64,000 nt of DNA, from positions 2,294,001-2,358,000 of the forward strand of contig JARKIF010000007.1 in the NCBI GenBank assembly GCA_029378245.1, read 5' to 3'. A model generated the notes under the pieces. It was not told the origin of the DNA. It saw only the letters and a program-made list of their open reading frames with translations, and ran no database searches. Below, piece after piece: positions 15,016-62,400 of this stretch (position 1 is its first letter; the number at the start of each line of letters is the position of its first letter). The translations under genes were made by a program, and so were the position numbers. This DNA is from Roridomyces roridus (lineage: Eukaryota > Basidiomycota > Agaricomycetes > Agaricales > Mycenaceae).

Positions 15016-15308
15016 GGTGGTGGTTCGTGTCAAAGGCGTGTCTGGCCAAACGCGGCTAAACACGTACGTACGTACGCCCGGCGGTTGGCGCGGCCTCCCC
15101 GTCGAATGAGCTCGAGCGCCCTCCACCCGCTAACGTCTGGTCTCACCCAGTTTTGGCCATTCCATGGAATCCAGTTCTTAATGGACGGAAGTCGTCCTCT
15201 CGGCAGCGGCCAACAGTCGGCATCCGAATACGTATCAGAGATGATCGGCATGTCGTGGACAGCCACCTGATCTCTATCTTGCTCTCTTCCACATTGTCAC
15301 CGCATCCC
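15016..15308. other. Ctr promoter side and upstream block shared with the 54.2-kb F-box copy
   Basis: Between two divergent genes. The part from about 15230 to 15308 (GGACAGCCACCTGATC..., then TCTTGCTCTCTTCCAC) resembles 54275-54331 upstream of the split F-box copy, so the duplicated unit includes the promoter. Confidence 0.5.
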
Positions 15309-16318
15309 ATGGCGTCAACTACTCATCTCTGCCCGCAATGCGGCTTCGACATGGTTCATATACCCACTCGAGGCAATCGACCCCGCCTTCGTGCTCGACT
15401 CTCCGAACTCGACTCCCTCTCTCCCCGCGGAAATTACCTTGGAAATATTCCAGAGCTGCGTGGATGTCTCCTCTGAGTCCTATCTTGACACTGCAACCGT
15501 ACTACCAGGCCCAGATCTGGCGCCCCTGCTACTGTTGCAGATTTGCCGACAGTGGCGGGAGATCGCTCTATCCAACCCACTGCTTTGGCGCTCCCTCCAT
15601 ATCATGGAGGACGTCCCGACGGAGCTCATTGACACGTGGTTTGCGCGTGCAGGGGATCTTCCGCTGCAATATCACCTCCAGAACCACAATCCATCCGAGG
15701 AAATTATATCTTCCTTGCTGAAAAACAGCCTCCTGTATGCATCTCGTTGGGAAGATGTACGGTTCATTATTCCGATCTCTCTGGTTCCCGAATTCGACCT
15801 CGGAAGCCAGTCTTTCCCTCATCTACGCAAATTCGCCTTGGACACCCACCCCGTCGGACCTATGAATACCTTAAATGCGAGTACCGCCGTTCCTATTGGT
15901 GATGCACCGCTGCTTGGCGCAGTGCGCCTCTCCAACATTCTTCCGACCATGCAATTGGATTTCCCATGGGCTCAATTGACCGACCTCAAACTGCACGGGA
16001 TGGACATCGCTAGATGTCTCTCAATCGTCGCGGGGTGTTTGCAGCTGCAACATCTCGAAGCCTTCACCACAGGCGCCTCCGTAACCCAGCCCCTTCTGAC
16101 CCTACCAACCGTGCAATCAATCAGCAGCACCTCTTCGGAGAACTGTCTCCTGCAGTATGTTATACTGCCGCAGCTCCACAAGCTTGTACTCCATGGGAGC
16201 ACAACCGACCAGCACGAGCATGTCGAGGGTGCTAGAGGCCTTGGTCCAGCGTTCCAACTTCCCGCTCAAGGATTTTCGCATCTACCGTGCCACCTCCTTT
16301 GAATTCTTCCGGTCGACC
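15309..16318 (+). pseudogene. F-box protein paralogue with two frameshifts
   Basis: Copy 1 of a local F-box family. The start at 15309 reads MASTTHLCPQCGFDMVHIP and LRARLSELDSL; here the coiled-coil segment that follows in other copies (ALTAERDALQAESD) is missing. The deletion shifts frame, and the F-box continues in another frame as SLPAEITLEIFQSCVDVS, then APLLLLQICRQWREIAL and LLWRSL. LRR-like blocks run to LPQLHKLVLHG. Near 16205 a second shift moves the end into a third frame (SRVLEALVQRSNFPLKDFRI, stop at 16316-16318). With two shifts it is unlikely to make the full protein, although an F-box-containing ORF from 15391 is still open for about 300 codons. Confidence 0.8.
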
Positions 16319-19196: not shown

Positions 19197-21411
19197 GGTT
19201 ATTGGCCCCCGCGCTGAAACTCTGATCTCATACACATACCTTTCCTTATTCACACACCATGTCGACAAACACTTTCTCGTCAACGGCCAAACTCGGTGAG
19301 TACTTCACGAAGCTTCCGAGTTGCAAGGCCGACGGCACAAACTGGGTCTTCTTTCGCGATCGGTTTCTATTTGCGGTGGACGCCGCCGGACTTAGCGACC
19401 ATTTTGAGGCAGGACCTTTGGGCACGGCGGAGGAGCCATTGGCTCCCACCGTCGTTGATCCCAAGAACCCTACAGCGGCGGAGACGACGGCGTTGGGCGC
19501 GCATATGACGCGCAGGAGATTTTGGAAGTCGGAGCAAGCGATCCTGAAGCAGGGGCTTGCGTCCGTCATTCCTGATTCGTTGTTTCTGAAGGTGAAGGGT
19601 GCCGGGACGATGGCGATGTGGGAGAAGGTGAAGGGAGAGTTCGAGAAGAAATCTAAAATGGTTACGGTTGATTTGCGCCGCAAGCTTCAGGATGAACGCT
19701 GTGCGGAGGGAGGCGATGTAAAGACACACCTAAACAAACTACAGACGATTCGGGCAGACCTCGTTGCGATGGAGGCTGATCCTGGCGATGAAAATTTTGT
19801 GGCGATCGTGCTCGGTTCACTGCCGACGTCTTACGAGACGTATCTGTCGGCTTTGACGGGGGCTGCGACGCTACTCGGTAAGACTCTTGACCCTGACATG
19901 GTGCTGCAGGGCATTAGTGATGAAGCCGACCGCAAGGCGGCGCGGCCTACGGGCAAGGGAGAGAAGGAAGCTGCATTCTACGGCGGGTCCGGGAATGGCA
20001 GCAAGTTGAAGTCGAAGAAGACTATGGAATGTTACAATTGCCATAAAAAGGGGCATATTGCGAAGGAGCGCTGGGCGAAGGGCGGTGGACGAGAAGGACA
20101 AAGCCCTCACCAGAGGAGGAACGGCAAGGCGAATATCGCCGAGACCATTGATGAATTGGACGCGGCTTGGATAGCCACGGTGCCAGAGTTGGATGACGAC
20201 GTTGAGTTTGATGAGATGGATGAAGAAGACGACAGGCGGGATACGGAAGGAAGCTACGAGAATGTGTTGGCTCCACCGGTCTCGTCGACGTCGGATAACG
20301 ACGACGAGCCGGGAGGTAGTGTATCAAATCACAATTTAGAATCACGTACCTTCGACGAGTGCATCGTCGCAGCCAACGTGACCACCACCACACCGACCAA
20401 AGAGCGGGAGATATACGATTCGGGCGCTAGTCAGCATATGACACCGTCACGACATCGGTTGATGAATTACAAGACCATCGCGCCGCGGGAAATTATGGCC
20501 GCGGGCGACAAGGGTTTGAGCGCAGTTGGAATGGGTGATATGCATATCGAGGTCCTGAACGGCGGGAATAAGACGAGAGTATTGTTGAAGGACGTACTTT
20601 ACATACCCAACCTACGCGTCACGCTGATTTCAATCGGGCGCATTGCACGAGCCGGCTACGCAGTCCAGTTCAGAGACGCCGAATGCCGCATTTTTGACCA
20701 CAAGAGTCGGCGGATCGGGACGATACCGCTATATCACGGGTTGTATTCAGTCGAGAGCGGAGGATGGATAGCTCAGGCGAACGTCGCGGATGTTGGTCCG
20801 TTGATAGCAACTCCGGAGGAGCTGCATCGGTTGTTGGGACACGTCCCGGTCGAGGCAGCGAAGAAGCTAGTAAAGAACGGGTTGGTCAGCGGAGTTGAGT
20901 TGGATGAGACGGCGGACACCTCCACGGAGGACTGCAAGTCATGCTTGCATGGCAAGATGACGCGGAAGCCGATCTCAAGAGCAAAGGAACGCGAACCGGC
21001 GGGAGAAGTCGGGGACGAGGTGCACACGGATCTGTGGGGACCGGCGACTGTCAAGACCCCGCAACACAAGCAGTATTACGCGTCGTTCACAGACGAGGCT
21101 TCGCGATACTCCGTAATAGTCTTGATGCACTCAAAGGACGAGACTCTCGAGGCATTTCAGAACGTTGACGCACGATGGGAGAGAGAGCACGGGATTAAAA
21201 TCAAGGTGTTGCATTCGGACAACGGTGGAGAATACAAGAATCACGAATTCGATAGATACTTGGCGCGGAGAGGTATCCGGCGCAAGTATACGGTCCACGA
21301 CACACCCGAACACAACGGGCTGTCCGAACGAGTGAATCGTACGTTCCTCGAGAAGGTCCGAGCGATGTTACATGCGGCAGGATTGCCGAGGAATTTATGG
21401 GGCGAGGCGTT

Positions 21412-21548
21412 ACTGGGAAGCTCCGACTCCGTCGGAGTAGACCTTGCTTGCTTGATTGGATCACCTTGAATCAGTTGATCGGAAGTCTTGTCGGGTTACA
21501 TCCGGATTAGGTAATTAAGGATCTCCAGAGACCTTGACAAGCAAGGTA
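21412..21548. mobile_element. Small insertion (about 136 bp) in the Copia integrase
   Basis: Sits between GAGGCGTTA and AAGCACGCC, which join to read EALKHAVWLKN. It contains the inverted pair ACCTTGCTTG / CAAGCAAGGT and a hairpin CTCCGAC-TCC-GTCGGAG at its left end. It resembles no other repeat in the window; TSD unclear (TA possible). Confidence 0.6.
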
Positions 21549-21768
21549 AAAGCACGCCGTGTGGTTGAAGAATTGAACCTCCACACGGGCGCTCGGCGGT
21601 CGTACGCCATACGAAGCGTTCTACGGAACGAAGCCAGACTTGCGGCACGTTTACGAATGGGGCTGCGAAGTCGATGTGCACGTCGAGGACGGCAGCAAGT
21701 TGGATGGTAGATCGCGGGAGGGACGATGGCTCGGATTCGATCAGGATAGTATCGACGGGCAACGTATC

Positions 21769-22313
21769 TAGGGCTCCGACCCGACCGTCAAAATGACGGG
21801 TCAACGAGCCGTCACGACGGGTGCCGGCCCGGCCGTACAGCCCTCTGAAGCCACAATTTTGACGGCCGGGTCCGGGTCCGGTTCCTTGGCTGACGGGGTA
21901 CCCGTTCCCGGCCGTCGACGGGCCATGACGGGTGGTGACGAGTCCTCGGCTAACTAACCATGCCGAGCTGCCATCATCACTTGATGCTCCAGGGGTAGCG
22001 CACATGGGTCATCGGCAATCTTCCCGATGGCCCACTACTGTGGTTCTGGCTGGTTCTGGAGGCTTCCCGAGTATCAATCCGTGATTTTGACTTGCCGGCA
22101 TCACATTGACATCAATCTGATGGTCGATTTAGCTGGAGGCATGGGCTGTCACCGCTCCGACCCGTCATGACGGCCGTGACGGGTCTGACGGGTACCACCC
22201 GGCCGTTTTGAGGCCTCGCAACATGGTCTGACGGCCGGGTGGGGCCCGTCCGACCTCCCATGACGGCCGTCAGAGCGACGGCCGTCGCCGTCAACGGCCG
22301 GGTCGGAGCCCTA
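21769..22313. mobile_element. 545-bp MITE with 8-bp TSD (AACGTATC), hAT-like
   Basis: TIRs TAGGGCTCCGACCCG / CGGGTCGGAGCCCTA. AACGTATC occurs at 21761-21768 and 22314-22321, and deleting the element restores the Copia frame DGQRI-YYPDTRSIRV. The subterminal regions are full of GACGGCCGT-type motifs, also seen in the 39.8-40.4 kb repeat. No ORF of note, so non-autonomous. Confidence 0.92.
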
Positions 22314-22794
22314 AACGTATCTACTACCCGGACACACGGTCGATTCGTGTCGAGCGGAGCGTTAAATTTCCGGACGTGAGGCGAAGTGGCGAGCTTTATA
22401 GGGTGCTGAATGAGGGGGAGAAGGACAATAAAGAGGTTGAGAAGAAGGCGGAATCAAGGAGCATCCAGCACGCACCTGAACAGCCCGCCGATCCCATTTC
22501 CACCCCAGCTCCACCTGAATCTCCGCTCTCCACACCTCCAAATACGCCGGAGAAGTCGACACAGGTTGCTCCGAGGAACATCTCGAGCACCATAGACCCG
22601 AAGAACATCATCGAGGGAACCAGGACGCGCCGCGCAGCTGCACACGTTGCACAGGTGGCGGATGACGTGTGCCTGGAAGAAGTGGCGATGGAGTTTGCAT
22701 ATCTAAGGACGGGGAGTCTATCAGACTCACCTACGGTCGAAGAAGCGATGACGAGGGAAGATTGGCCAGAGTTCTAAGGCAGCGATGGACGTGG

Positions 22795-24214
22795 TGAAAC
22801 GGTGCACCGACGTGCAGCCGTGAAATCAAGACTCAAAATAAGTACGAGCTGAAGGCGAGTAATCTCAAACCAACAACTAACAAATCTTTAATCCAAATCT
22901 CACAACTTCAAATCAATACTTCTCGTGTGTGTGTTCGGGGTGGTAGGACAGGCGTATCGTCCGTCAAGACCAATGTGCAAATATCAATTCCGCGGGAGCG
23001 GGATGTTCAATTCAAAGTAACAGGTAAGCCTGAGTAGTCTTCCCGCAAAGAGGGTTATCAATGGATTCGGGGATCTCGGGGACGCGAGGTCAACCGCACA
23101 AGATCAAGCTTGCAAGTATTCAAGTTTCAAGTTTCAAGTCCCGGGGACCAAAGGTCAACCACGCAAGACAGACAGGGGGGAATGCAAGCAAGCCTTCTAT
23201 TCGGATTCTAAGGTGAAGTCCCGGAGGAAGCTTCGATTTCAAGTGTAATTCAAATCCAATCAATAAATTCTGAGTGATCGTCCAGTTGCCTCCTAAGAGA
23301 GCGGTCGGGTCTACTACTGTACACGGTAAACTACTGCGGCTTATATACATTTTGCGGGCACTGATAAATATGGTATAATTGCGTGCGGATGACACATCGC
23401 ATCTTCCCGGGAGGCGTTCCGAGTGACCCTAGGCACTTATTAGGGAAATGGTCCTGCGGGACATCAATTGCGACAGATTGCGTGCTCGCAACCTCAGTCA
23501 GCACATTCGGCCGGCCATCGGCATCTGCCAATGTGGTCCCGCTGGTTGCCGGGAACCACGCCGGTGTTCTATCTGGTTTCAATTCATCAGCGGGAGAGAT
23601 TCCCGGTGACGGATGTCAAACTGTCATGTCGGCACTAAAGCGGCTCGGGAATGGCACCTCCGGGAAACCTAGCTACCAACCCGGGGGTAGTTTATTAAAC
23701 TCCCGCGAGATAGGCTTTGATAATGGCTCTGCCCGGAGGATGGCATTTCACATCCCACCATGTCCACACTGTGTAGTGGCTGTACGGTGCTCGTTTCTTT
23801 CAATTCCGTTCAAATTCAGAGTGATCGACCGATCATCTATGATATCATTGATCAGCGGACTCCCGGGAGGAGCCTCGATCATTTCCAATTCCAAATCATG
23901 GTTCCCCGGACAGTGAAGACTGCCCATTGAATTGATATAGTGGTTGACCCCAGAGAGTCAGTTTCATGACAGCCAGCGAAAAGGCTTGATAGTTTCTCTT
24001 AGTCACCCTTGGTGCAATAGTACGCGGCTGTCAACCGTTTCCTAGAGCCCGGCAGGTATGTACATTCCCGCCAGCTTGCGACCATTAGGGTTCAATATAC
24101 CGTCCCGAGTAGAACGTATACCCTCTGCAGCCATTGTATGCCTGGAGATGTAAGTCTTTGATAAAAGAGCGAAAATTGGTGTATTTCACGCGTAGCCGCA
24201 TGCACGCCTTATCA
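22795..24214. mobile_element. 1.4-kb LTR-like element in Copia pol, family copy A
   Basis: Begins TGAAACGGTGCAC and ends CTTATCA; flanks share CGTGG or CGTG. The first 200 bp match copy B at 32222 (CCGTGAAAT, CTCGTGTGTGTGTTCGGGGT, AGGACAGGCGT.TCGTCCGTCAA), and both have TATACATTTTGCGG later. No coding sequence seen. TG...CA ends and a 4-5 bp TSD suggest a solo LTR of a larger element. Confidence 0.65.
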
Positions 24215-25729
24215 TCGTGGAGATGGAAGCGATGAGAAGGACAGGCACGTTTGGTGACGGCTTAGTCATCCGACCTGATGGCCAGAATGTCGTCGGCTCC
24301 AAATGGGCGTTACGGATCAAGCGGAAGGCGAACGGCGAGATTGACAAATACAAAGCTCGACTCGTCGCTCGGGGCTTCACGCAGGTTCCAGGCGTGGATT
24401 ACTTCGAGACATTCTCGCCCACAGCCAAACTGTCCTCACTACGCACAATTTTATCTATTGCCGCGCGTTACGACTGGGAGATCAAGGTGTTTGATTTTTC
24501 CGCGGCATTCTTGAACGGCCAGTTTTCGGAGGATGAGGAGATTTATATGGAGCAGGCGCCGTACTACTCAAACGGCAACTCGGGGGAGGTGATCCGACTT
24601 CAGCGGACCATTTACGGCTTGAAGCAGTCCAGCCGCAAGTGGTACGAGAAGCTCACGGCATCTCTCGCCACGCTCGGCATCTACCCACTTCACTCCGACC
24701 ATGCGGTCTATCCTGTAACTCGAGGCGAAGACATCGCGTTGCTTGCCATTCACATTGATGACAGCACTATTACCGGCAACTCACCTGCGTTGATTGACGA
24801 GATTCAGAGGGAGATTGCTCAGATGTTTAAAATCACAATGCTGGGTTCGATCAGCTGGTTGTTGGGAATGGAGGTGAAGAGGAATCGGGAGAAGGGGACC
24901 TTGGCTTTGTCGCAGACGACCTACATCGACTCGTTGCTGCAGAAGTTCAACATGGTGGATTGTAAACAAGTTTCGGTTCCCCTGGATCCCACGGTTCAAC
25001 TCACTCGTGAACAGTGCCCTGTGGATTCAGAGGCAGCATCGGCGATGCGGAGCATCCCATATCGCGAGTTGATTGGCGGATTAGTCTGGTTGGCTACGGC
25101 AACTCGACCAGACCTTGCATTCGCGGTCTGTGTCTTGTCTCGTTTCATCGACAACCCCGGGCTACCGCACTGGCATGCGGCGAAGCGCGTACTTCAATAC
25201 TTGAAGGGTACACGCACACTGGCGTTGGTTTACAGCACGGCTGACACCACACTGGGTTTGGAAATCTTTGCGGATGCAGATGGAATGTCGTTGGAGAATA
25301 GGAAGGCCGTTTCGGGCTATGCTTTCGTTTTAAATGGAGGGGCGGTATCTTGGTCGTCGAAGCAACAGGAGATTGTTTCACTCTCGACGACAGAAGCTGA
25401 ATATGTGGCCATTACCTACACGGCGAAGGAGGCCATTTGGTTCCGTTATTTCATGGCCGAACTCTTCGGGTCCATTGAATTTCCGTTCATCATCTACAAC
25501 GACAACCAGTCAGCTATTGCACTTGCACAGGCTGAACTGGGTCAATTCCACGCACGCACCAATGATATACGCTACCACTTTATTCGGGAGCACATTGAGA
25601 AGGGAACTCTAGAGGTTGTTTATTGTCCGACGGCTGAGATGACGGCGGATGTCTTCACGAAAGCGCTGGCTGCTTTCAAGTTTAAACCCTTGGTTGGAAA
25701 GTTGGGGTTGATTCTGGTTTGAGGGGGAG

Positions 25730-43434: not shown

Positions 43435-44578
43435 GAGAACAAACGTATATAGAAAAGTATACCTAAGTATACGTAGACCAGGTAGACTCGATACACTGGG
43501 TAGACTACCAGGTACACTCGGTAGACTGTCAGGCCGATAGACTCGGTAGACCGTGCCGTTGATTCATCACGACTGATCAAGCGCATCGTCTGCGACGAGC
43601 TCGACCGGTCACCGCCAAGCCCGCCACGTAACGCCGCTACACCCGCTACGCCCGCCCGCCAGTCCCTGCCCACAGGACCATCGTCACTCATTTGCAAGCG
43701 CCTCGCCCTCACCCTCGCTTCGCCACGTCCCGACCTCGCTCTCCCATGCCTTACCCTCACTCCCGCCACGCGAAGAACTTGGCACACCTCGCCTCGCCAA
43801 GCAACACCCGCCTTTCCTCGCCACATTATGACGTCACACCGTCCGCCTCGTCGAGCAGCGCCAGGTACGCCTCGCCATACACCTCGTCTGCACCCCTCCG
43901 AGCCCGGGTACATGTTTGCCGCTGTAGATCCACTCGCCATGTTCGTACCGCTGTTCACAAGAGACCACGGGATCAGAAATGTCGGACATCGGGTACCCGT
44001 GAGAGAATTTTCCATCCCAAAAAGGAAAACTAGTGATGGCAATGTTTTTCGTGCATAACAGGACATTCCGAGCAACTTTCAAAAAAGTTTTTTCAGCTCG
44101 GACCCCCCTCCCTACGTAATGATTTGATCGGATCATGTCAAATCTCGCGGGAACCATCAGTCGCATCAGCGGTGACCCGAAACTCTCTCACGGGTACCCG
44201 ATGTCTGACATTTCTGATCCCGTGGTCTCTTGGCTGTTCATGCCCACCACACTGCCACTGTGCCGGCACCATTCCGGAACTGCCGAGCGCTAGCTGCTTG
44301 CTGGCGTGATGCTTGATGATACCGTATAGGCGAGGCGTCGGCATCGGTGCTGCCGCCGCTAGTTTATAATATGTGCACCTTGTGTAATTACGACTGTAAT
44401 ACTCCATTTCGTTTTCGTGCCGACAGCCGCCTCAATGCCGGCTGATGGGCTGATCAATGCCGTCTACAGAGTCTACACAACGTGAGGTGTACGTAGAGTC
44501 TATCAGAAATAACCATTGGTGTACGAGGTCTACCGAATCTATCACATTTCGTAGACTTCCGGGCTCACGGTCTTTCTG
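43435..44578. mobile_element. 1.14-kb element with GTAGAC subterminal repeats, TSD GACAACTC
   Basis: GACAACTC at 43427-43434 and 44579-44586. The left end has at least five GTAGAC units (43479-43550); the right end has GTAGAC/GTCTAC units (44459-44560). Terminal inverted identity is weak (GAGAACAAACG against CAGAAAGACCG). It contains the 275-bp MITE and an intervening GC-rich stretch without a recognised gene. Confidence 0.65.
43958..44232. mobile_element. 275-bp MITE, copy 1, TIR CAAGAGACCACGGGATC, TSD GCTGTTCA
   Basis: GCTGTTCA at 43950-43957 and 44233-44240. The TIRs are long (about 50 bp, through GACATCGGGTACCCGTGAGAG). It is the inverse-orientation sister of the copy at 57049-58792; both are 275 bp once the insertion in the second is discounted. 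Confidence 0.95.
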
Positions 44579-46882: not shown

Positions 46883-47089
46883 TGTCAGGAACTGGGTTTA
46901 TTTGCATCGGTTCGTATTGTATGTATCCGTATACTTGATGTACAGCCTACGTATGACATGAATCAGTCCTTCTATCTTCTTGACTTCCACGTCCCCTGTC
47001 GCACTATTGTCCATTTGCGCACTCGAGTGTCTCCTCAATCCTGAGCCTCGTTGGCTCTAGCAGCCACCTCCGGCATGCATTTTCTGACA
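46883..47089 (+). repeat. Right LTR of the TRIM
   Basis: 207 bp; two differences from the left copy (GACATGA for GATATGA, TTGCGCA for TTGTGCA). It supplies the false C-terminal codons of the F-box gene. Confidence 0.95.
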
Positions 47090-48349
47090 TTTGAGACAGA
47101 CGTGTAAGGCATCGAGAGAGATACCTCCGACTCTGAGCTCGAACGCATGGAGTGGGCATGCCGAGCGTCGAGTGAAGTCAATCATGGGCGTGGCGTGTTG
47201 GAGCACCATGTTCCAAGCGGTTACGACCAGTTTTTGGAGTCGTGGGAGCGTGAGGTGTTCCAAGATGGAGCTGCCGTCGGCTGGCGTTGTGTTAGCATCG
47301 GCACTCAGGGATTCTAGATGCAATAGGGTCACTGGCGAATGCGGTGTGGCAACCCCCGACGTGGCAACATTGAGATGCTGGAGCTGCGGGCATCCTGCGA
47401 GAAGCGAGAGGCAGTCCCCGATGGGAATGACGTTCAACGTCAAAGTCCGCAACTGGTGCCAGGGAAGATCGAATGTGACATAAGGCAGGGTGCGGATGTG
47501 CACTTCACGAAGTGAGGGCACGTTGCGCAGGGTGATGGTCCGCGAGTCGAGGTCTTCGAAAGGATGCTGGGTAACCACGAACGAGATCTTGCGCAGAATA
47601 GGGAACTGCACTTCGTCCAGCCGCAGCTTGGAGAACGAGGCGACTGGCATTCCGATAACTATATCCTGCCAGCGGCGAGAGTGCTGAAAGCTCGCCTCGA
47701 TCATTGGGCCGGCCTCAGCGACATCCCAACAGTGGAAGGTACAGTCCAGAGGAAGGTCTCCAGAACGCGGCAGCCACGTCTGCAGCAGTTCCCCTGGGAA
47801 GCGTCTGATGGAGCCAAGAGACCGCCATAGTTGGGGACTGGCGAGAGCAATCTCGCGCCATTGATGACAGACCTGCGTCAAGAGCAGTGGTGCCTCGGCA
47901 GGTGAATGCACCACCCAGTGACCGACGCACTGCTGGAAGATTTCCGTGGTGATTTCGGGTGGGAGGGACAGAATTGGGTAGACGATGGCGTCGGATTCCG
48001 CCTGGAGAGCATCCCGTTCGGCGGTCAATGCTGCGATGAGAAGATTGAATTCGGAGAGGCGCAAGCGTAGGTGGGCTCGGTCGGTCGGTCTGAGGAGTGG
48101 AGGCCGGTTGAATGCAGATTGAGGACTGGGTGACATGCGGAGTGACGTAGGAGACAGGCTCCGACGGGCCCTGAACAGTGAATCCGCGATGGATGTCGTG
48201 GCAGGAGACAAGAGCGAAGCGGTCAGGTGCTGATCACACTCGGCTGCAGAACGCGCTCGGCTGCGGAATCTCGGCAATCGAGGACCTCGTACGGCCAACA
48301 AGCGGCCAACTCTGTCTACAGAATCGCTGTTGTTCCGCTTTGCATGCAA

Positions 48350-53915: not shown

Positions 53916-54331
53916 GGGCGTCGGGACTCTGGAATGAGGGGAGTTAACAGCTATGGCCGAGTGGAGACACCTGAGGACCTTTATATACTGGCGCGACATT
54001 CGTACCACAGCCCTGTCAATGAATCACTTGTCAGCGCAGCGGCGACAGTTAGAATGGTAAAGGCAGCACCGCTTCGAAGGCATGGATTATGCAAATCCGA
54101 CGTGAAACGTCCTGTTAGAATAATAAAGTGCAGGGCGATCGGAGAGCGAAAAACAGTTTGCCAGTGCATGTGGAGAGAGCATCTTGGAGCTGTGCTGGTG
54201 CTACAGTAAGTATGGCCAAACGCGGCAAACAATCGGCGCTCTTTGCGCGATCTCGGATCAACACACAGCGCCGGACACGGCGGACAGCCACATGATCCGA
54301 TCTCTCTCTCTTCCACCTTGCTTCCACCGCG
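53916..54331. other. Spacer; right part duplicated from the 15-kb F-box upstream region
   Basis: From about 54200 (GGCCAAACGCGGC...) to 54331 it resembles 15040-15308 upstream of F-box copy 1, including GGACAGCCACATGATC, TCTCTTCCACCTTG and CGCGATGGCG. Confidence 0.5.
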
Positions 54332-55725
54332 ATGGCGTCAGCTACTCATCTTTGCCCGCAATGCGGCTTGGACATAGTTCATCAGGAAAAACCTCCCTGA
54401 GAATTTGATGAAACCTTTAGAAACATTATTTTGACAGCCAGTAAGTGTCAAAACTTTTGCACATCTTTGACAAGATGTTGAAACTATGTGCACATTTGGT
54501 GAAAGTACAGCAACCTGGCACCAAATTTTCAAGTCCAAGTTCTGGTAGGCCTGCCAGCTACCAAGCTCACAATATATGCTTCGCAGCATCCGCCTGGCCT
54601 CGCAGTTGATCCGTATGGCAAAACAGTTCCAGAGGCTGGAATGTGAAAGATTATCTTAAAGTTTCGAAAGTTGTGCAAAGCTGGCTCGGCACGGGTCAGG
54701 GCAACGAAAGAATCCATCCAAGTCCATTGCCGAGCAAGTGATATGGCATCTGTTGCCGTTGCGGAGAGCGTCCGGGAATTGGGATAACCGCAGAACCGGG
54801 GTGCTGATCCCGGTTGTTCGGTGGTGATCCCGGTTGTCTCAGTGATCTCGGTGGTGATTCCATCATGGATCAAGGTTTGTCAGCCCCTTTCCACCTGTCT
54901 CAGCCGCCTCCTCGTTGTCCTCGTCCCCCGCCCATTGTCTAGCTCGCCCATCGCTCCCACTACCCACTCCCTGCTCTCACCACACCTACAGCTAACGCCA
55001 CCGACTGCCCAGTCTTCAAACGCCCCGTCACGGTCCGGTAAAGATCGTCTCGGCACCCTCGCCGTCCTTGCCCGACTCACAGTCGCCAGTCAGCCTCGTA
55101 CACACCATATGCACATGGCCTCCACCACACCGCTTTCCCTCGCGGCGCAATGCCTTCCTTTGCGCCTCACCATGACGTATTGCCCTCGCCGTGTCATGGG
55201 CATCCCGTCATAGCACCAGCCCGCCATCAGCTACTCCCCAACCTCTCCCGCTCTCCGCCTACTCTTCGTCGCTGTGCGTACGGCACCGTGCCCCAACCTA
55301 AGGAACCCACGCGTGCGCCGATTGCGAGTATTTTGTGCCCCGCCCGCCATCCATTACTTACACAGTATAAATTGTTATTCTTATATCAACTTCCTATATA
55401 CTGCAATACGTGAATTCAAGATATGGATCATGCAGGCGGAGTCTGGCGGGATGAGCCCGCCAGAGCATATCACGATCAAGACTTTGCTGGCCGTGATGGC
55501 TGCCGCACCGTGAGAACACCGTGGCACCGCCATCACGGTGACGGTTCTGCGGTTATTCCAAATCTCGGACTTTGTGCCGTTGCGATGGATTCGGAAGAGC
55601 GGCGTCCGATGTCCGAAGTTGCACACATGTGCAGGTTGATTGATGATCCGCAGGTGACATAAATACTGACAGACATCCAGCTGACTCTTCCTTTCGCCCC
55701 CCATCTTCTCTCCCTCCTCTCCTAG

Positions 55726-56486
55726 TAGGGCTGTGTTAGAATACTTTTTGGGGGTGTTATATTACAGGTAGTAGGTTCGGGCCTCTGGGTATATAACAGA
55801 GGGCTGTTATAAGTGTTAAATAACCGCGCGCAGCGTGGGAAAATTTTGTTATTTAACATGTTAAATAACAGTTAAATAGCTGTTATTTAACGGTTAAAAT
55901 TACTACACTGGTGAATAACTACTTGAAGCAGTCCTCGATGTCATAGTCGTCCGGTCTGCCTACAGGCACAGTGGGCTGCGCAGGAGCCGAGGGTTTAGTC
56001 GACGTGACCTTTTGTGATGGCCCGAGAAGTTCGGTCAGCGCTGCGCTGTCCAGTTTGATGAAGTCGGCGATTTCGAATCTGACGGATGAGCGTGAAACGA
56101 GGGCAGGAGCATCCCGATCTTGACGATCAACCTCGTCGAGGTCATACGGTCCGGATGCTCGAACCACAAGGTTTCGAGGTCGTCCGGATGCTCTGACGCA
56201 GAAGCCATAGACGTGGCAGGCTAAAAAAGAATGTCACACGAGTCACGGCATCACGCGCACTGAATCACGCGCATGTGTTTCGCGGTCCGGCATCGCAAGG
56301 TTCAAGGTCCGCTGGACGCGTTCAAATTGTGAGCAGGAGAGGGCCATCTAACTGCGTAATTTTCGAGTTTATAACACATTTTTAACAGGCCTCTGAGAAG
56401 GCTCGATGTTAAATACTTATTTAACCGTTAAATCACGTGTTAAGAAATGATCTGTTATTTAACATTTGGTTCTTAACACAGCCCTA
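55726..56486. mobile_element. 761-bp hAT-like element, TIR TAGGGCTGTGTTA, TSD TCTCCTAG
   Basis: TCTCCTAG at 55718-55725 and 56487-56494. Both ends carry repeated TTAAATAAC / GTTATTTAAC motifs (55815-55905 and 56400-56465). A minus ORF of 82 codons inside (56167-55919, FEIADFIKLDSAALTELLG, ending DDYDIEDCFK) has protein-like composition but no known domain. Nested in the 4.7-kb element. Confidence 0.92.
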
Positions 56487-57048
56487 TCTCCTAGCCTCTC
56501 CTCCGCCTCCCGGGTCTTCACCCACTCTTGCTGGTCATTCTCATGGTTCTCTGAGTCCATGGGCCTCGGTCATGTATGCAGAGACTGCATTATTGACTCC
56601 GGTGAGTTTTGGCTCCGTCTGCTTGGCCTCGGCTGAATGCCCTGCAGGCATCTCAGCAACGCTGGCCACGCTTTCATGGTCAGCCCGCCCTCCCCAATCC
56701 ATTCCACTGACTGACCTAGCTGTAGTTCTGCCCGTCCCAGTCCGTTACCGCGCTCGACCTTTCCCAACGCCACGTCAGCGTGCCCAGTACCTTAGCAACC
56801 GCGTCGGGGTCCCATCACCGTATGTCCATCACCGTGCCTCATGGTCCTCATGGTCTGCTAACCGCCGCTTCATTATAGCATCCGATGTTGTGCACCGCCC
56901 TCATTCATTTCCACCCCGCCCGTGCCAGCACACTCTCCGGTGTGTGTCTTCCCTCCCTGTACTCTACATGTGCTAATCTCGTCTCCCATAGGGTTTTTTC
57001 CGCCGTTAGTGCAGAAAAGCTCGGGCGTGTCCCGCCGTCCGTATTGGT

Positions 57049-58792
57049 CAAGAGACCACGGGATCAGAAATGTCAGACATCTATGGAGGCCCGGAGCACC
57101 GCGCGTTGAAACATGATGCCAATGCACGATTGCCGCTGTCAATTAGCTGTTCCGAGATAGGACCCCGTAACCGTCGACACATTCTGCCGTATTCGAACAT
57201 TGATTGGACATGAGATCAGTTGATTTACCGTCGCGCCGACTGTCACGCCGACCGTCGGAGCATACTACTACTTATGACGACCTTTTCCACTCGTACTTGA
57301 AGTTTTGGAATGGCCCATACCTTACGTGTGTCCTAAGTTCGCCATCACTTTCCTCTGCACGCCACTCCGGGCTGCATTGAATTGTAAGTAGACCCTCCCT
57401 TCGTAGTCCTCCTCAAGCTCATTGCAGCACATCCCAGCATCTCTTGGAGACTTCGTCCCCGATCCGACTACTCGCGTCAAACTCACGTGGGGGGGAGGGG
57501 GGGGGGGGTTGAATCGTTTGCAGTGAGTGATTGGAAATCCAACGGATCAGCTCTCCAGCCTTACATTCCGCTGGGCCTTCATCCCATGACTACAATCAAT
57601 GTGGTGGTCCACTTTCTTCTCCACACTCTCCTCAGCACCACACAGGCCCCCAGCTCGCTCTACGCCTCGTGCCTCCCTCGCCCTTCACGGTGTTGGGGAA
57701 CTCCGGGAACCAAGACGCGCAGAGCGAAAATGCAATGGATCCAGATACTCATAACCAAGTGATTGCTTACAGATAACTGTGGACTCTGGAGGAAGGCATT
57801 GACCTGGTTCCGAACGTTCGAGACATGTATGCTCCTGGCGACCCTGACATTTTACAACTGGTCAACGTTCCTATGGACTTCAATTTAATCACAACCCGGA
57901 TTTACGCAGACACTGATCAGCCTACAGTAAACAGGAAAGGTTGTTGGACCGTCTGTCTCACAGCCCTCCTTTGCCGACGCGTGAAACAATGCCGCTCGGA
58001 GCTGGTCTATGGACATTAAGGAGCGATGGGGATTTACAATACAGGCCGAATCAAATGACCTGCCAGTGGAATTACTCAACAGGTTACAGGTGCTGCACGG
58101 AGCAGAGTCGGCTGTGGGGCAGTACCGACTCTACCGATTCCAAGGGAGGCATCAACAATGGGAATGATCTTGGTTCGTGCTTCAGTGTTCACAACTCAGT
58201 TCCTCGTCATATCTCACCAGATTTTCAACGTATGTACCAGATTCTGAACATTTGCAGCAGTTGAACCATCTCGTCGATCAAGTGGGACGGGAGTGTTCTC
58301 ATCGATGCAGAGGAGGAAGAGGTATATGTCTGGTTTGAGAAGGAAGAGGGCCCTGCCAGTGAGGCCATCATGCAGATAAATGGTAATTTGCTCAGGCTCA
58401 GAGTCGGCGCCATGGTGCATCCGCCTGTCAAATCAATGTTGTGATACGGAAGAATGTGCCGACGGTTACGGGGTCCTGCCTTTGGAACGGTCATTGACAG
58501 CGGCCATCATGGATTATCATAGCGCGATGCTCCGGGCCTCCATAGACATCGGGTACCCGTGAGAGAGTTTCGGGTCACCGCTGATGCGACTGATGGTTCC
58601 CGCGAGATTTGACATGATCCGATCAAATCATTACGTAGGGAGGGGGGTCCGAGCTGAAAAAACTTTTTTGAAAGTTGCTCGGAATGTCCTGTTATGCACG
58701 AAAAACATTGTCATCACTAGGTTTCCTTTTTGGGATGGAAAATTCTCTCACGGGTACCCGATGTCTGACATTTCTGATCCCGTGGTCTCTTG
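57049..58792. mobile_element. 275-bp MITE, copy 2, enlarged by a nested insertion; TSD GTATTGGT
   Basis: GTATTGGT at 57041-57048 and 58793-58800. The MITE parts are 57049-57081 and 58551-58792, together 275 bp, reverse orientation to copy 1, about 98 % alike by eye. The rest is the nested element. Confidence 0.93.
57082..58544. mobile_element. 1.46-kb TIR element, TIR TATGGAGGCCCGGAGC, TSD GACATC
   Basis: A 16-bp perfect TIR with imperfect similarity for about 65 bp (CCGCTGTCAAT, GTTCC). GACATC at 57076-57081 and 58545-58550 (a 7-bp AGACATC reading is also possible). It sits inside the MITE. No transposase recognised. Contains a G-run (57489-57512). Confidence 0.9.
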
Positions 58793-59245
58793 GTATTGGT
58801 GGTGTTGTAGTGTATATTACATTTTGTGTTACATCCTGTATCTTATGTAGCTTTGAATGCATATTTCCTTTTCTAATTTTGTGTCTTGTCCAAGTCTGAG
58901 TGAGCTGCAGTGGAAAAAGTGCGCTGCTATTCGGCGAAACCCACCAGCAATTCTACGAAACCTTTGGGAAATAGTTGCACAGTATTTTTGGCAAGAAGAT
59001 AATGTGTAACATCTTTGCAAGGTTACGCAACTCGAGCAAATTGTTGAAACTATTTGAAATAGTTTCAACAATTTGCGCGGGAGGCTTTTCCTGATGTTCA
59101 TAAACCCACCCAAGGCAACCGCTCCCGCCTTCGAGCCCGCCAATCGTACTCCCACGACCATCTCTGGCGCCCCTGCTGCTGTTGCGGATTTGCCGACAGT
59201 GGCGGGAGATCGCGTGCCCCCAACTCTGGATGTCGCTCTATCTTT

Positions 59246-59427
59246 TCGTTCCACTTGCAGCACCGGCAACCAGCACGACATCTGTGGATTGTGTATGTCG
59301 TAAGTTGGCCACTTCCTATCAGACACTGGACAGCCGCGAGAATAACTTCTGAATAAGTCGGTACGCCGCACAGTACTAATCCTGTGCGCTCGCTACGTGG
59401 CAGTACTTCCGCCTCCTTCCTCGTACC
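59246..59427. other. Short spacer before the NACHT gene
   Basis: No gene seen; the promoter of the NACHT gene should lie here, directly behind the F-box relic. Confidence 0.4.
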
Positions 59428-62400
59428 ATGCTTGGCGCCGTATTGCGGATCTGTGGGGGACTCTGCGGCCAGAAGATAGAGGACTGCCCGTCTCCATCGG
59501 GCAACCCAGATGTTGGGTCAGCGAAAGGGAGCACCGCACTGGCAGGTACGTGCATGCACGTTCGAGTTCACTGCACAGCATCTGACAATTTGGCTGTAAT
59601 CATTTCACTAGAGCCCAAACTTCCAACGCCGAGTTCGAGTCTAACGGGTGTTGGACCATCAAGGGCTCCAGGCTACATCGACACCCTGAAGAGTGGATTC
59701 ACTCTCCTGGCGAAGACAGCAGAACCATTTCTAGACGGCACGCCCTTCAAAATCCCCATCGCCGTTCTTAATTCATTCATCGAACTTGCGAGCGCAAGTC
59801 ATCTCATCGGTTCAATCGAAACACAACTAATATTACTGTTTGCCTATTTCAGACTGTCTCAGACAACAAGAGTAGTCTGAGGGCTCTACTTGAGCAGCTC
59901 GCTGGTACGCTTGACGTGGTCATCGAGGCTATGGAGCACGCAACATCCAACGAAGCCAAAGAAAGAGCTCGAAGACTGTCCGAGTGAGTCACGTTGTTTT
60001 GAACGCTGGGCTTCCATATATTTCGTCCTGCAGATATTTAGGCCACGAAATGGAGGAGTTCGAAGTCCTTCAAAAACGTCGCGGAATCGTGAAGGTCTTG
60101 GAGAGTGACCAGGATGTCACGACGGTCGAGGCGGCTGTCAGGCGAATTGACGCCCAGCTTCGGAGCTTCCAGGTATTTATTCACTTAGAAGTGTGAGTGT
60201 TCTGTTGACCGAGGTCGTCGACTAGCTGGCCGTGATCTCCTCGATCGAGAAGAATACAGAAGTTTTGCGAAGCATCGCTGTTTCCGGTCGCGAACAATCA
60301 GGTAAGTAGCGGCCATTTCTGGTTTGAAGTGCCATCCGCTGACGAGTCCAATAGCACTCCAAACGTTATACCGCGTAACGGCCACGGATGCGTCCCATGA
60401 TTCGGGAGAGAGATTTCCCCCACCTCAATGCCACCCCCAAACTCGTACCGACATCCTTCAGCAGTTTTCTCACTGGGCCTCAACAAACGATCCGAGCACC
60501 CGGATTCTGTGGCTCCATGGGCCGGCCGGAGCAGGGAAGTCTGCCATTGCACAGACTCTTTGTCAAGAAATGGCTGCAGATGATCACCCGGTTGCCAGCT
60601 TTTTCTTCAAACGCGGGGACCCATCTCGCGGCGAGAGCATGAAGCTCTTTCCCACCATTGCATATCAGCTCGCCTACCTCATCCCCGAATTCCGTACCGC
60701 AATCGTTGATTGCGTGGGCGGTGCTCATATATTCAACAAACCATTGTCCACGCAGCTGAAGACCCTCATCATGGAGCCCTGGCATCAGCTCCCCAACACT
60801 CACAATGCGATCGTTGTTATCGATGGGTTGGATGAGTGCACGGGGGAGAAGCGTCAACAAGAGATTGTTCGGTCTATCGCTCAGGGGTTCATCGGGAATC
60901 CTACTCCCCTTCGATTTCTCATTGCCAGTAGACCCGAGCCCCACATCGCCGAGCTGTTTCAAGAGCCCAGCCTCCAAAACATCCACCGGGAGATCAATAT
61001 TGCCCCGTCATTTACGGACATCCACACATTTTTGCGGGATGAGTTTGGGCGCATTTCTCAAGATCACAGAATGATGGTTGGTGTAACAGCTCCCTGGCCA
61101 TCACATGAAGTTCTGGAGCATCTCATTCAGAGATCATCCGGATACTTCATTTATGCAGCCACAGTGATCAAATTCATCAACGACCCAGATTTTCGTCCAA
61201 CTGATCGGCTGAACATCATCATGGGCATGGCCAAACCCAAGCACGGATCTCCCTATGCCGCACTGGACCAGTTGTACACTCAAATTCTTGACGAGGTTCC
61301 TGATGGCTCTCAGCTCCTCCGCATTCTGGCTGTCCTCGCTGCTCATCATGTTCTCCCCATGTTCCAGATTGAACAACTTTTGGGCCTGGAATCTGGCGAT
61401 GTTTGGCTGACACTTCGTCGTGCTCGCTCGGTGCTAGATGTACCTTCCCAGCATATGGACACCACCCCGCTTCGATCTCACCATGCATCATTCATTGACT
61501 TTCTCCAGGATGAAGCACGCTCTGGTGCTTTCTTCACTGGTCCAGGCAGCATTCGTCATCAGCATCTAGGAGCTCATGTTCTGGATGCACTGTCTTACAC
61601 CTGCAAGGATCAATCTCTCAACGCTGTTGGCCATGTTGCATGGTATGTTGCGCCTGTATTCATTTTCTGGAGCACTTCTGACCTAATGGTGGTGACAGGG
61701 AATTCAACGAAGAGGATATAATTCAGTGTTTGCCGACAGAAGACCTCGTTGCCCGTTTACGCCCAGTGAATCCGGATTTTATTGTCAAGTTTCCAGATTC
61801 ACAGAGCTCCTCTGAGAAAGTCCTGGAGTGGTTGAAGGTATGTCGGAGAGACATACCTGCATTGAATGTATCTGATTCTGGGACAGACAATTCAACCAGC
61901 ACCTCCCGAGGACCTCATTCAAGTCTGGGAAGCATATCACTTCATGGCTGTGTGTGATGGTGCCTGGCGCCGCGCACCAAGGAAAACAAGGAATGCCGCG
62001 ATAGATGTATTGCTGGACATCAATCTAGTTCTGGCCTGGACATCCCCACACCTGATCGAGCTGTTCCATGCCTATGTCCTCCTATATGACTCCGTCAGAG
62101 GTCCGCCACCTTCCCTGGACAAGATCCGCCACGTTCTGGACTATTCATGGGATGACCTACGGAGGATTATATGTCCATTGCGTGAAACGGTTGGCCAAGA
62201 CTCTCATGCACTGGAATTGTTGTTTTTATCGGCATGCCATCCGACACGCATTAACGAATTTCATCCAGCTGCGACGCTCCAACATCTGGCTCAGGGAGGT
62301 ATGCGGACCATGATCAATGTGACAACGAACCACCTTCCAGTCAGGTTTTAGTGAGTTGTTACGGTTCAAATGATGAGTATTATTTCTAAATTCCTCATCC

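What the first reader, a model, noticed from the sequence alone, without database searches (positions are those of the whole stretch)
54332..59245. Four-level nested insertion inside one F-box gene copy
The F-box start (54332-54382) and its continuation (59094-59245) are separated by a CAGGAAAA-ended 4.7-kb element. Inside it lie a 761-bp element (TSD TCTCCTAG) and a 275-bp MITE (TSD GTATTGGT), and that MITE is itself split by a 1.46-kb element (TIR TATGGAGGCCCGGAGC, TSD GACATC). Each step has its own duplication, so the order is fixed: F-box copy, then hAT-like element, then MITE, then the TATGG element. This gives a readable relative clock of element activity at one site.
Basis: seen in the sequence. 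Interest (0 to 1): 0.8.

Follow-up and report, generated by a model that had tools for sequence, protein, structure and literature searches.

The report
Nested transposons in an F-box remnant
One broken gene fragment in a mushroom genome has been hit by at least five different jumping elements, one inside another; this is an ordinary but unusually readable record of transposon activity.

Summary
The nested insertion is real, with corrections. The window lies in a 90.8-Mb genome, probably the mushroom Roridomyces roridus. B (761 bp), C (275-bp MITE) and D (1463 bp, 6-bp TSD, TATGG ends, IS3EU-type) are as described. The outer element A (54380-59096) is not hAT-like with an 8-bp duplication: its ends are CATCAGG..CCTGATG with a 2-bp duplication (TT), as published for PlavakaB. 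A fifth element, E (54764-55576, TSD CCGTTGCG), was missed. All five have other genomic copies with duplications of their own. Two close copies of A lack E and B; one (C113) also lacks C and D, giving empty sites. The gene copy is a remnant: 187 bp with the first half of the F-box motif, and everything after about 59237, are missing. 'The order is fixed' is too strong: a cut-and-paste element can carry inserts along, and elsewhere a C-type MITE sits inside a D-type element. Divergence from the copies compared gives two strata: A and E 4-6%, B, C and D 0.4-2.6%. An AG spacer between 8-bp repeats at B's site may be the scar of an element that left. Known biology; low interest.

The parts
54282..54379 (+). 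Left part of the F-box-family remnant (homology from 54282; ATG at 54332, MASATHLCPQCGLDIV..), ending at the TT target duplication
   Evidence: 82% to paralogue 15257-15359; continuous with 5 of 5 paralogues after rejoining
54380..59096 (.). Element A: non-autonomous PlavakaB-like element, 1375 bp net without its inserts; TIR CATCAGGAAAANCCTCCC (17 of 18), TSD TT (54378-54379 / 59097-59098)
54764..55576 (.).
   Evidence: stand-alone relatives C273, C124, C268, C88; empty site in the C113 and C346 copies of A
55726..56486 (.). Element B: 761-bp hAT-type element, ends TAGGGCTGTGTTA, TSD TCTCCTAG (55718-55725 / 56487-56494)
55716..56502 (.). Candidate older excision footprint at B's target: CCTCTCCT-AG-CCTCTCCT in the pre-B sequence (55716-55725 joined to 56495-56502; B lies between)
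   Evidence: absent from the two closest A copies; extended pattern found once in the genome with up to 3 mismatches, at this place
57049..58792 (.). Element C: 275-bp MITE (57049-57081 + 58551-58792) split by D; TIR 33 of 33, TSD GTATTGGT (57041-57048 / 58793-58800)
   Evidence: unsplit copy in the window at 43958-44232
57082..58544 (.). Element D: 1463-bp non-autonomous IS3EU-type element, TATGGAGGCCCGGAGC ends, TSD GACATC (57076-57081 / 58545-58550)
59099..59245 (+). Right part of the F-box remnant; 187-bp internal loss removes the first half of the F-box motif and shifts the frame; homology stops near 59237
43958..44232 (-). Unsplit sister copy of C in the same window, opposite orientation, TSD GCTGTTCA; 3 of 275 differences to the split copy

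Best explanation
Five non-autonomous cut-and-paste elements of at least three kinds, judged by ends and duplication length, landed in and around one another at a dead F-box gene fragment. Element A (PlavakaB-like, 2-bp TSD) entered the F-box remnant. E (8-bp TSD), B (hAT-type, 8-bp TSD) and C (MITE, 8-bp TSD) entered A independently. D (IS3EU-type, 6-bp TSD) entered C. Shown: boundaries, duplications, other copies of each family, and empty sites for E, B, C and D. Inferred: the transposases that moved them (none was recognised here), that each inner insertion followed the outer element's arrival at this place, and that the fragment was already dead when A came. The mechanism is ordinary DNA transposition in trans, with accumulation because fragment and elements are not under selection.
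For: Exact TSDs for all five elements in the window. Other copies with their own TSDs, among those whose two ends I read: A 6 of 7 distinct sites with 2 bp, the seventh (C157=C194) with CAA/CAA, 3 bp (72 end matches exist); B 4 of 4; C 18 of 21 flank-distinct copies exact, out of 28 loci examined, 4 of which lacked recognisable ends and 3 of which repeated a site, plus both window copies; D 13 of 15 pairs, the two failures being one site on two contigs (76 ends exist); E 3 of 4 sites. The C113 copy of A holds none of E, B, C, D and reads through their sites. C346 lacks E and B as far as it was read. Removing D leaves 275 bp, the length of the unsplit window copy of C. Plavaka (142 exon-level matches) and hAT (32) transposase domains are present in the genome.
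Against: No element here shows a recognisable transposase, but the test was partial: of 42 open stretches listed, eight pieces from A, B, D and E were scanned, and the only Pfam match was a sub-threshold CYSTM hit in D (14.3 bits, cut-off 25.2). No IS3EU transposase model was searched in this genome; the open frames of four long D-type copies were only looked over by eye. The order of events could differ if A or C moved with inserts already inside. B's empty site in C113 and C346 differs by 10 bp from the pre-B sequence. The two gene halves have different best-scoring relatives.
Confidence: 0.9

Rival explanations
1. The composite was assembled elsewhere: E, B and C(+D) were already inside A when A jumped into the F-box remnant, so nesting does not give the order of arrival at this site.
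For: All elements are cut-and-paste types with ends in place, and nothing in the nested duplications dates A's last jump relative to its inserts. TIRs of A are nearly intact (17 of 18).
Against: No other copy of A with E, B or C at the same position appears in the match lists (lists are capped: 40 of 45 candidates scored, 40 of 48). Two close A copies lack E and B, and C113 also lacks C. A 4.7-kb non-autonomous composite is less likely to move than a 1.4-kb one (inference).
Confidence: 0.15
2. The site is an assembly or recombination artefact joining unrelated repeat fragments.
For: Short contigs that look like allelic duplicates exist in the assembly (for example C244=C90, C157=C194).
Against: Every junction has its own exact duplication, and the targets match uninterrupted relatives; joins of random fragments would not do this.
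Confidence: 0.02
3. The outer element is hAT-like with an 8-bp duplication.
For: TAGTTCAT/ATGTTCAT agree at 6 of 8 positions.
Against: The other copies read show 2-bp repeats (6 of 7 sites) and no 8-bp ones, and the TIR extends to CATCAGG on both sides.
Confidence: 0.03

Closest known systems
[quoted passage not shown]
   Same: Ends CATCA..TGATG and 2- or 3-bp TSDs, described from Agaricomycotina; element A matches these
   Different: Element A is 1375 bp net and no Plavaka transposase was recognised in it; no autonomous relative sharing A's ends was tied to it here
IS3EU superfamily (passages of PMC12730594 and PMC10045372)
   Same: 6-bp TSDs, long TIRs, TAYGG..CCRTA ends; element D fits
   Different: No transposase recognised; D's TIR is 26 of 30 identical at the tip; the published fungal TET-carrying IS3EU families also carry transposase and alpha-kinase genes
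hAT superfamily MITEs (8-bp TSD; superfamily traits other than TSD length recalled)
   Same: B and C (and perhaps E) have 8-bp TSDs and short TIRs; hAT dimerisation domains occur in the genome
   Different: No transposase was linked to any of them by shared ends; E's ends are imperfect and its superfamily is open
Interruption or nested-insertion analysis of transposon chronology (PMC2517846, PMC2672092, PMC5657132, PMC3014933: search listing with abstract starts only)
   Same: Uses which element interrupts which to order activity
   Different: Those are genome-scale methods; one site gives only local order

Membership tests
PlavakaB (element A) | Termini 5'-CATCA..TGATG-3' | tested here: met
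   CATCAGG/CCTGATG or CATCAGGG/CCCTGATG in the window and the 6 further sites read, except that C113's left end reads CATCGGG
PlavakaB (element A) | 2- or 3-bp TSD | tested here: met
   2 bp at 6 of 7 sites, 3 bp (CAA) at the seventh
PlavakaB (element A) | Plavaka-type transposase (PF18759) | tested here: inconclusive
   One open stretch of A scanned, none found; the genome holds many PF18759 matches but none was tied to A's ends, so A is at most a non-autonomous relative
IS3EU (element D) | TAYGG..CCRTA ends, TIR over 30 bp | tested here: met
   TATGG..CCATA; 26 of 30 at the tip, 78.8% over 132 aligned columns
IS3EU (element D) | 6-bp TSD | tested here: met
   13 of 15 pairs
IS3EU (element D) | IS3/IS481-like DDE transposase | tested here: inconclusive
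   None over cut-off in five open stretches of D; four longer copies were only looked over by eye; no family model was searched genome-wide
hAT (elements B, C) | 8-bp TSD | tested here: met
   B 4 of 4; C 18 of 21 plus both window copies
hAT (elements B, C) | Mobilised by a hAT transposase | not tested
   Domains exist in the genome but their element ends were not fetched
hAT (element E) | 8-bp TSD with short TIR | tested here: inconclusive
   8 bp at 3 of 4 sites, but other superfamilies also give 8 bp (Zisupton, PMC12730594 passage; others recalled); ends GAGAG/CACAA are not diagnostic
F-box gene family (the interrupted copy) | Whole F-box motif (PF12937) above cut-off | tested here: not met
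   Second half only, 20.1 bits against a cut-off of 24.3; first half deleted. Paralogue L086 scores 27.0 on the same half and keeps the first half

The most novel reading that the evidence does not exclude
The site also records a departure. Before B arrived, A carried CCTCTCCT-AG-CCTCTCCT where its two closest relatives have a single CCTCTCCT. An exact 8-bp repeat split by AG, the reverse complement of the preceding CT, is what a hAT-type element leaves when it excises through hairpin ends (a two-base P-nucleotide footprint). B then landed across that scar. The locus would then hold at least six mobile-element insertions plus one excision, and would show a second hAT-type landing on a hAT scar.
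Probability: 0.45. Interest if true: 0.35.

Novelty: new member of a known kind. Interest (0 to 1): 0.2.

Why it matters
It is a well-resolved example, with empty sites, of how a mushroom genome accumulates non-autonomous DNA transposons of several kinds. It documents a PlavakaB-type and an IS3EU-type non-autonomous family in what is probably Roridomyces roridus. The same copies could feed a genome-wide interruption matrix for ordering family activity, which one site cannot do.

Tried and rejected
Considered and rejected: an 8-bp hAT duplication for A (other copies show 2 bp). E as MULE-like with a 9-10-bp TSD (first reading, note; dropped because C273 and C268 support 8 bp). Captured gene in D: the DNA search with D returned many places (40 of 83 candidates scored), the strongest of them D-type copies, and no obvious separate host gene; Pfam gave nothing over a cut-off. 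Autonomous IS3EU among four long D-type copies (C90, C6, C124, C465): none recognised by eye. Outgroup test of the footprint with distant A copies: C431 and C157 are CT-rich and ambiguous; C244, C204, C168 and C490 align across the site only in short CT-rich pieces or not at all. Allele without A: not found in this assembly. Literature: no held paper has 'Roridomyces roridus', 'genome' and 'transposable elements' together; the rows listed (10, 10 and 8 of longer lists) showed nothing on this site.

Errors made on the way: one A piece was misaligned (11% difference), C35 was compared in the wrong orientation, and C423 across a replaced segment; all redone.
Full report
Where it is. The window is contig C469, bases 2294001-2358000, of a 90,791,526-base genome in 501 contigs. 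An F-box protein of the window (47057-48349) has its nearest named relative, 72% identical, in Roridomyces roridus, on a contig of 2,797,855 bases, the length of C469. So the genome is probably that mushroom; this is an inference from contig length and names.

Anatomy. All five elements have exact target-site duplications: A 54380-59096 (TT), E 54764-55576 (CCGTTGCG), B 55726-56486 (TCTCCTAG), C 57049-58792 including D (GTATTGGT), D 57082-58544 (GACATC). Taking out E, B, C and D with one duplication each leaves 1375 bp of A. So there are five insertions: A in the gene remnant; E, B and C side by side in A; D in C. Depth is three.

The outer element. On both sides the match extends to CATCAGG. 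In other copies the flanks agree over two bases only: TT (window), TA (C431), CA (C244 and its duplicate C90), CC (C204), CA (C113), CA (C490), that is 6 of the 7 distinct sites read; the seventh (C157 and its duplicate C194) has CAA/CAA. PlavakaB families are described with 2- or 3-bp duplications and CATCA..TGATG ends (PMC12730594, section 3.2.2). The pattern CATCRGGRAAANCCTCCC occurs 38 + 34 times in the genome and its reversal never. PF18759, the Plavaka transposase, has 142 exon-level matches. No transposase was found in the one stretch of A that was scanned.

The missed element. Searching the left part of A gave relatives covering only about query 382-1195 (C273, C124, C268, C88; 88-89% identity), while copies C431, C157 and C194 run from 381 straight into 1193. 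The C113 and C346 copies of A read through the site with a single CCGTTGCG. Duplications of 8 bp are seen in the window, in C273 (C124 is the same site) and in C268; C88 shows none: 3 of 4 sites read.

Inner elements. B: the three other copies read carry GTCGCTGG, ACTCGGTA and CTCAGGCC, so 4 of 4 with the window. Two of them (C149, C13) are themselves interrupted by other sequence. C: of 28 loci examined, 4 lacked recognisable ends; of the other 24, 21 are distinct by flank and 18 of these have exact 8-bp repeats; L015 and L021 may be one site seen on two strands, and one search lists further places that were not fetched. D: TATGGAGGCCCGGAGC occurs 39 + 37 times, its reversal never. Of 15 pairs of ends read, 13 have exact 6-bp repeats: 9 of 11, plus C90, C124 and C465 and C6. 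The two failures (GTTCCG or GTTCTG against GTTTCG) are one site on two contigs. IS3EU families are described with 6-bp TSDs and TAYGG..CCRTA ends (PMC12730594, passages; PMC10045372, passages).

Empty sites. C113 aligns to A as 54380-54528, 54742-54763, 55575-55723, 56495-57048 and 58793-59096, with short overlaps at the E, B and C sites as single targets should give. C113 does not align over 54529-54741. The window's second C copy (43958-44232) is whole, 275 bp, 3 differences. The five paralogues compared (two in the window, one downstream on C469, C2, C489) read GTTCATATNCCCA without interruption where A sits; the rejoined remnant reads GTTCATAAACCCA.

The gene. The remnant lacks 187 bp of paralogue L086, about residues 29-91, which include LPHEITSEIF; 187 is not a multiple of three, so the frame shifts. 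The second half of the motif remains at 20.1 bits for PF12937, under the cut-off of 24.3; L086 scores 27.0. Homology to the family ends at 59237. From 59288 the sequence matches another family on C13, and the ORF at 60324-61718 has NPHP3_N and NACHT domains. So A probably hit a dead fragment, but whether the losses came before or after A is not known. The halves are short and their best-scoring relatives differ: the left part matches window 15257-15359 best, the right part C469:2360147-2360244 (105 bits) slightly better than window 15494-15566 (96.9 bits). The clean join at the junction favours one gene.

Clock. Differences to the copies compared: A 48 of 1137 (C113) and 35 of 687 (C346); E 48 of 792 (C273); B 6 of 761 (C149) and 6 of 760 (C13); C 3 of 275 (window copy) and 1 of 275 (C334); D 12 of 1458 (C223) (all); C 7 of 275 (C35) and D 6 of 1202 over the part of C423 that aligns. 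This gives an older stratum (A, E: 4-6%) and a younger one (B, C, D: 0.4-2.6%). These are bounds set by the copies found, not insertion dates, and they do not order B, C and D. Of the 33 transitions between A and C113, 21 are at CpG, so rates are uneven.

Limits of the order. For cut-and-paste elements, nesting puts the inner insertion after the birth of the outer copy, not after its arrival here. No copy of the composite appears in the match lists, which are capped. At C57 (and its duplicate C158) a C-type MITE with TSD CACTCTCC lies inside a D-type element, the reverse of this site, so the local order is not the order of family activity.

A possible ghost. With B and one duplication removed the site reads CTCCCT-CCTCTCCT-AG-CCTCTCCT-CCGCC; C113 and C346 have CTCCCT-CCTCTCCT-CCGCC. 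The repeat is exactly 8 bp, and AG is the reverse complement of the preceding CT. [quoted passage not shown] The extended form was found once in the genome with up to 3 mismatches, at this place. Against it: the run is CT-rich, so slippage, or loss of 10 bp in the relatives' lineage, is not excluded, and distant copies did not decide it.

Verdict. Nested DNA transposons and their use for relative chronology are established ideas (listing). Interest 0.2.

Noticed in passing
window 55716-55725 and 56495-56502: CCTCTCCT-AG-CCTCTCCT at B's target, absent from the two closest A copies: possible hAT excision footprint.
   Followed up: partly
L017 (C57:589693-592941) and L020 (C158:31553-34800): A C-type MITE (TSD CACTCTCC) lies inside a D-type element, the reverse of the nesting in the window; the D-type element's own 6-bp repeat there is inexact.
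   Followed up: yes
L070 (C149:25450-27860) and L071 (C13:1586050-1587920): Both other near-full copies of B are interrupted by unrelated inserts of about 1.5 kb and 1.0 kb; the first has ends GGATAATTC and an apparent 5-bp repeat ATAAC (by eye).
   Followed up: partly
L096 (C346:58250-60400): The C346 copy of A carries its own insert of about 1.4 kb starting a few bases beyond the site where E sits in the window.
   Followed up: no
L041 (C423:324632-326095): A D copy about 99.5% alike over D 253-1463 has D bases 50-252 replaced by sequence that does not match D: a mosaic.
   Followed up: partly
C146:659155-659943, C124:313813-315951, C465:86960-89267, C90:1257689-1264638 and others: D-type elements share ends but range from about 0.8 to 7 kb with different interiors.
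   Followed up: partly
C244/C90, C157/C194, C57/C158: Short contigs repeat element insertions with the same flanks as long contigs, suggesting uncollapsed haplotypes in the assembly.
   Followed up: no
window 19259-25722: Open frames that look like copia-type gag-pol polyprotein parts (by eye from the ORF list, recalled motifs; no search made).
   Followed up: no
window 60324-61721: ORF with NPHP3_N and NACHT domains beside the F-box remnant; the stretch 59288-60500 has 65-88% matches clustered on contig C13.
   Followed up: partly
window 47057-48349: F-box-like protein gene with an open frame of 430 aa and relatives named as Roridomyces, Mycena and Favolaschia.
   Followed up: partly
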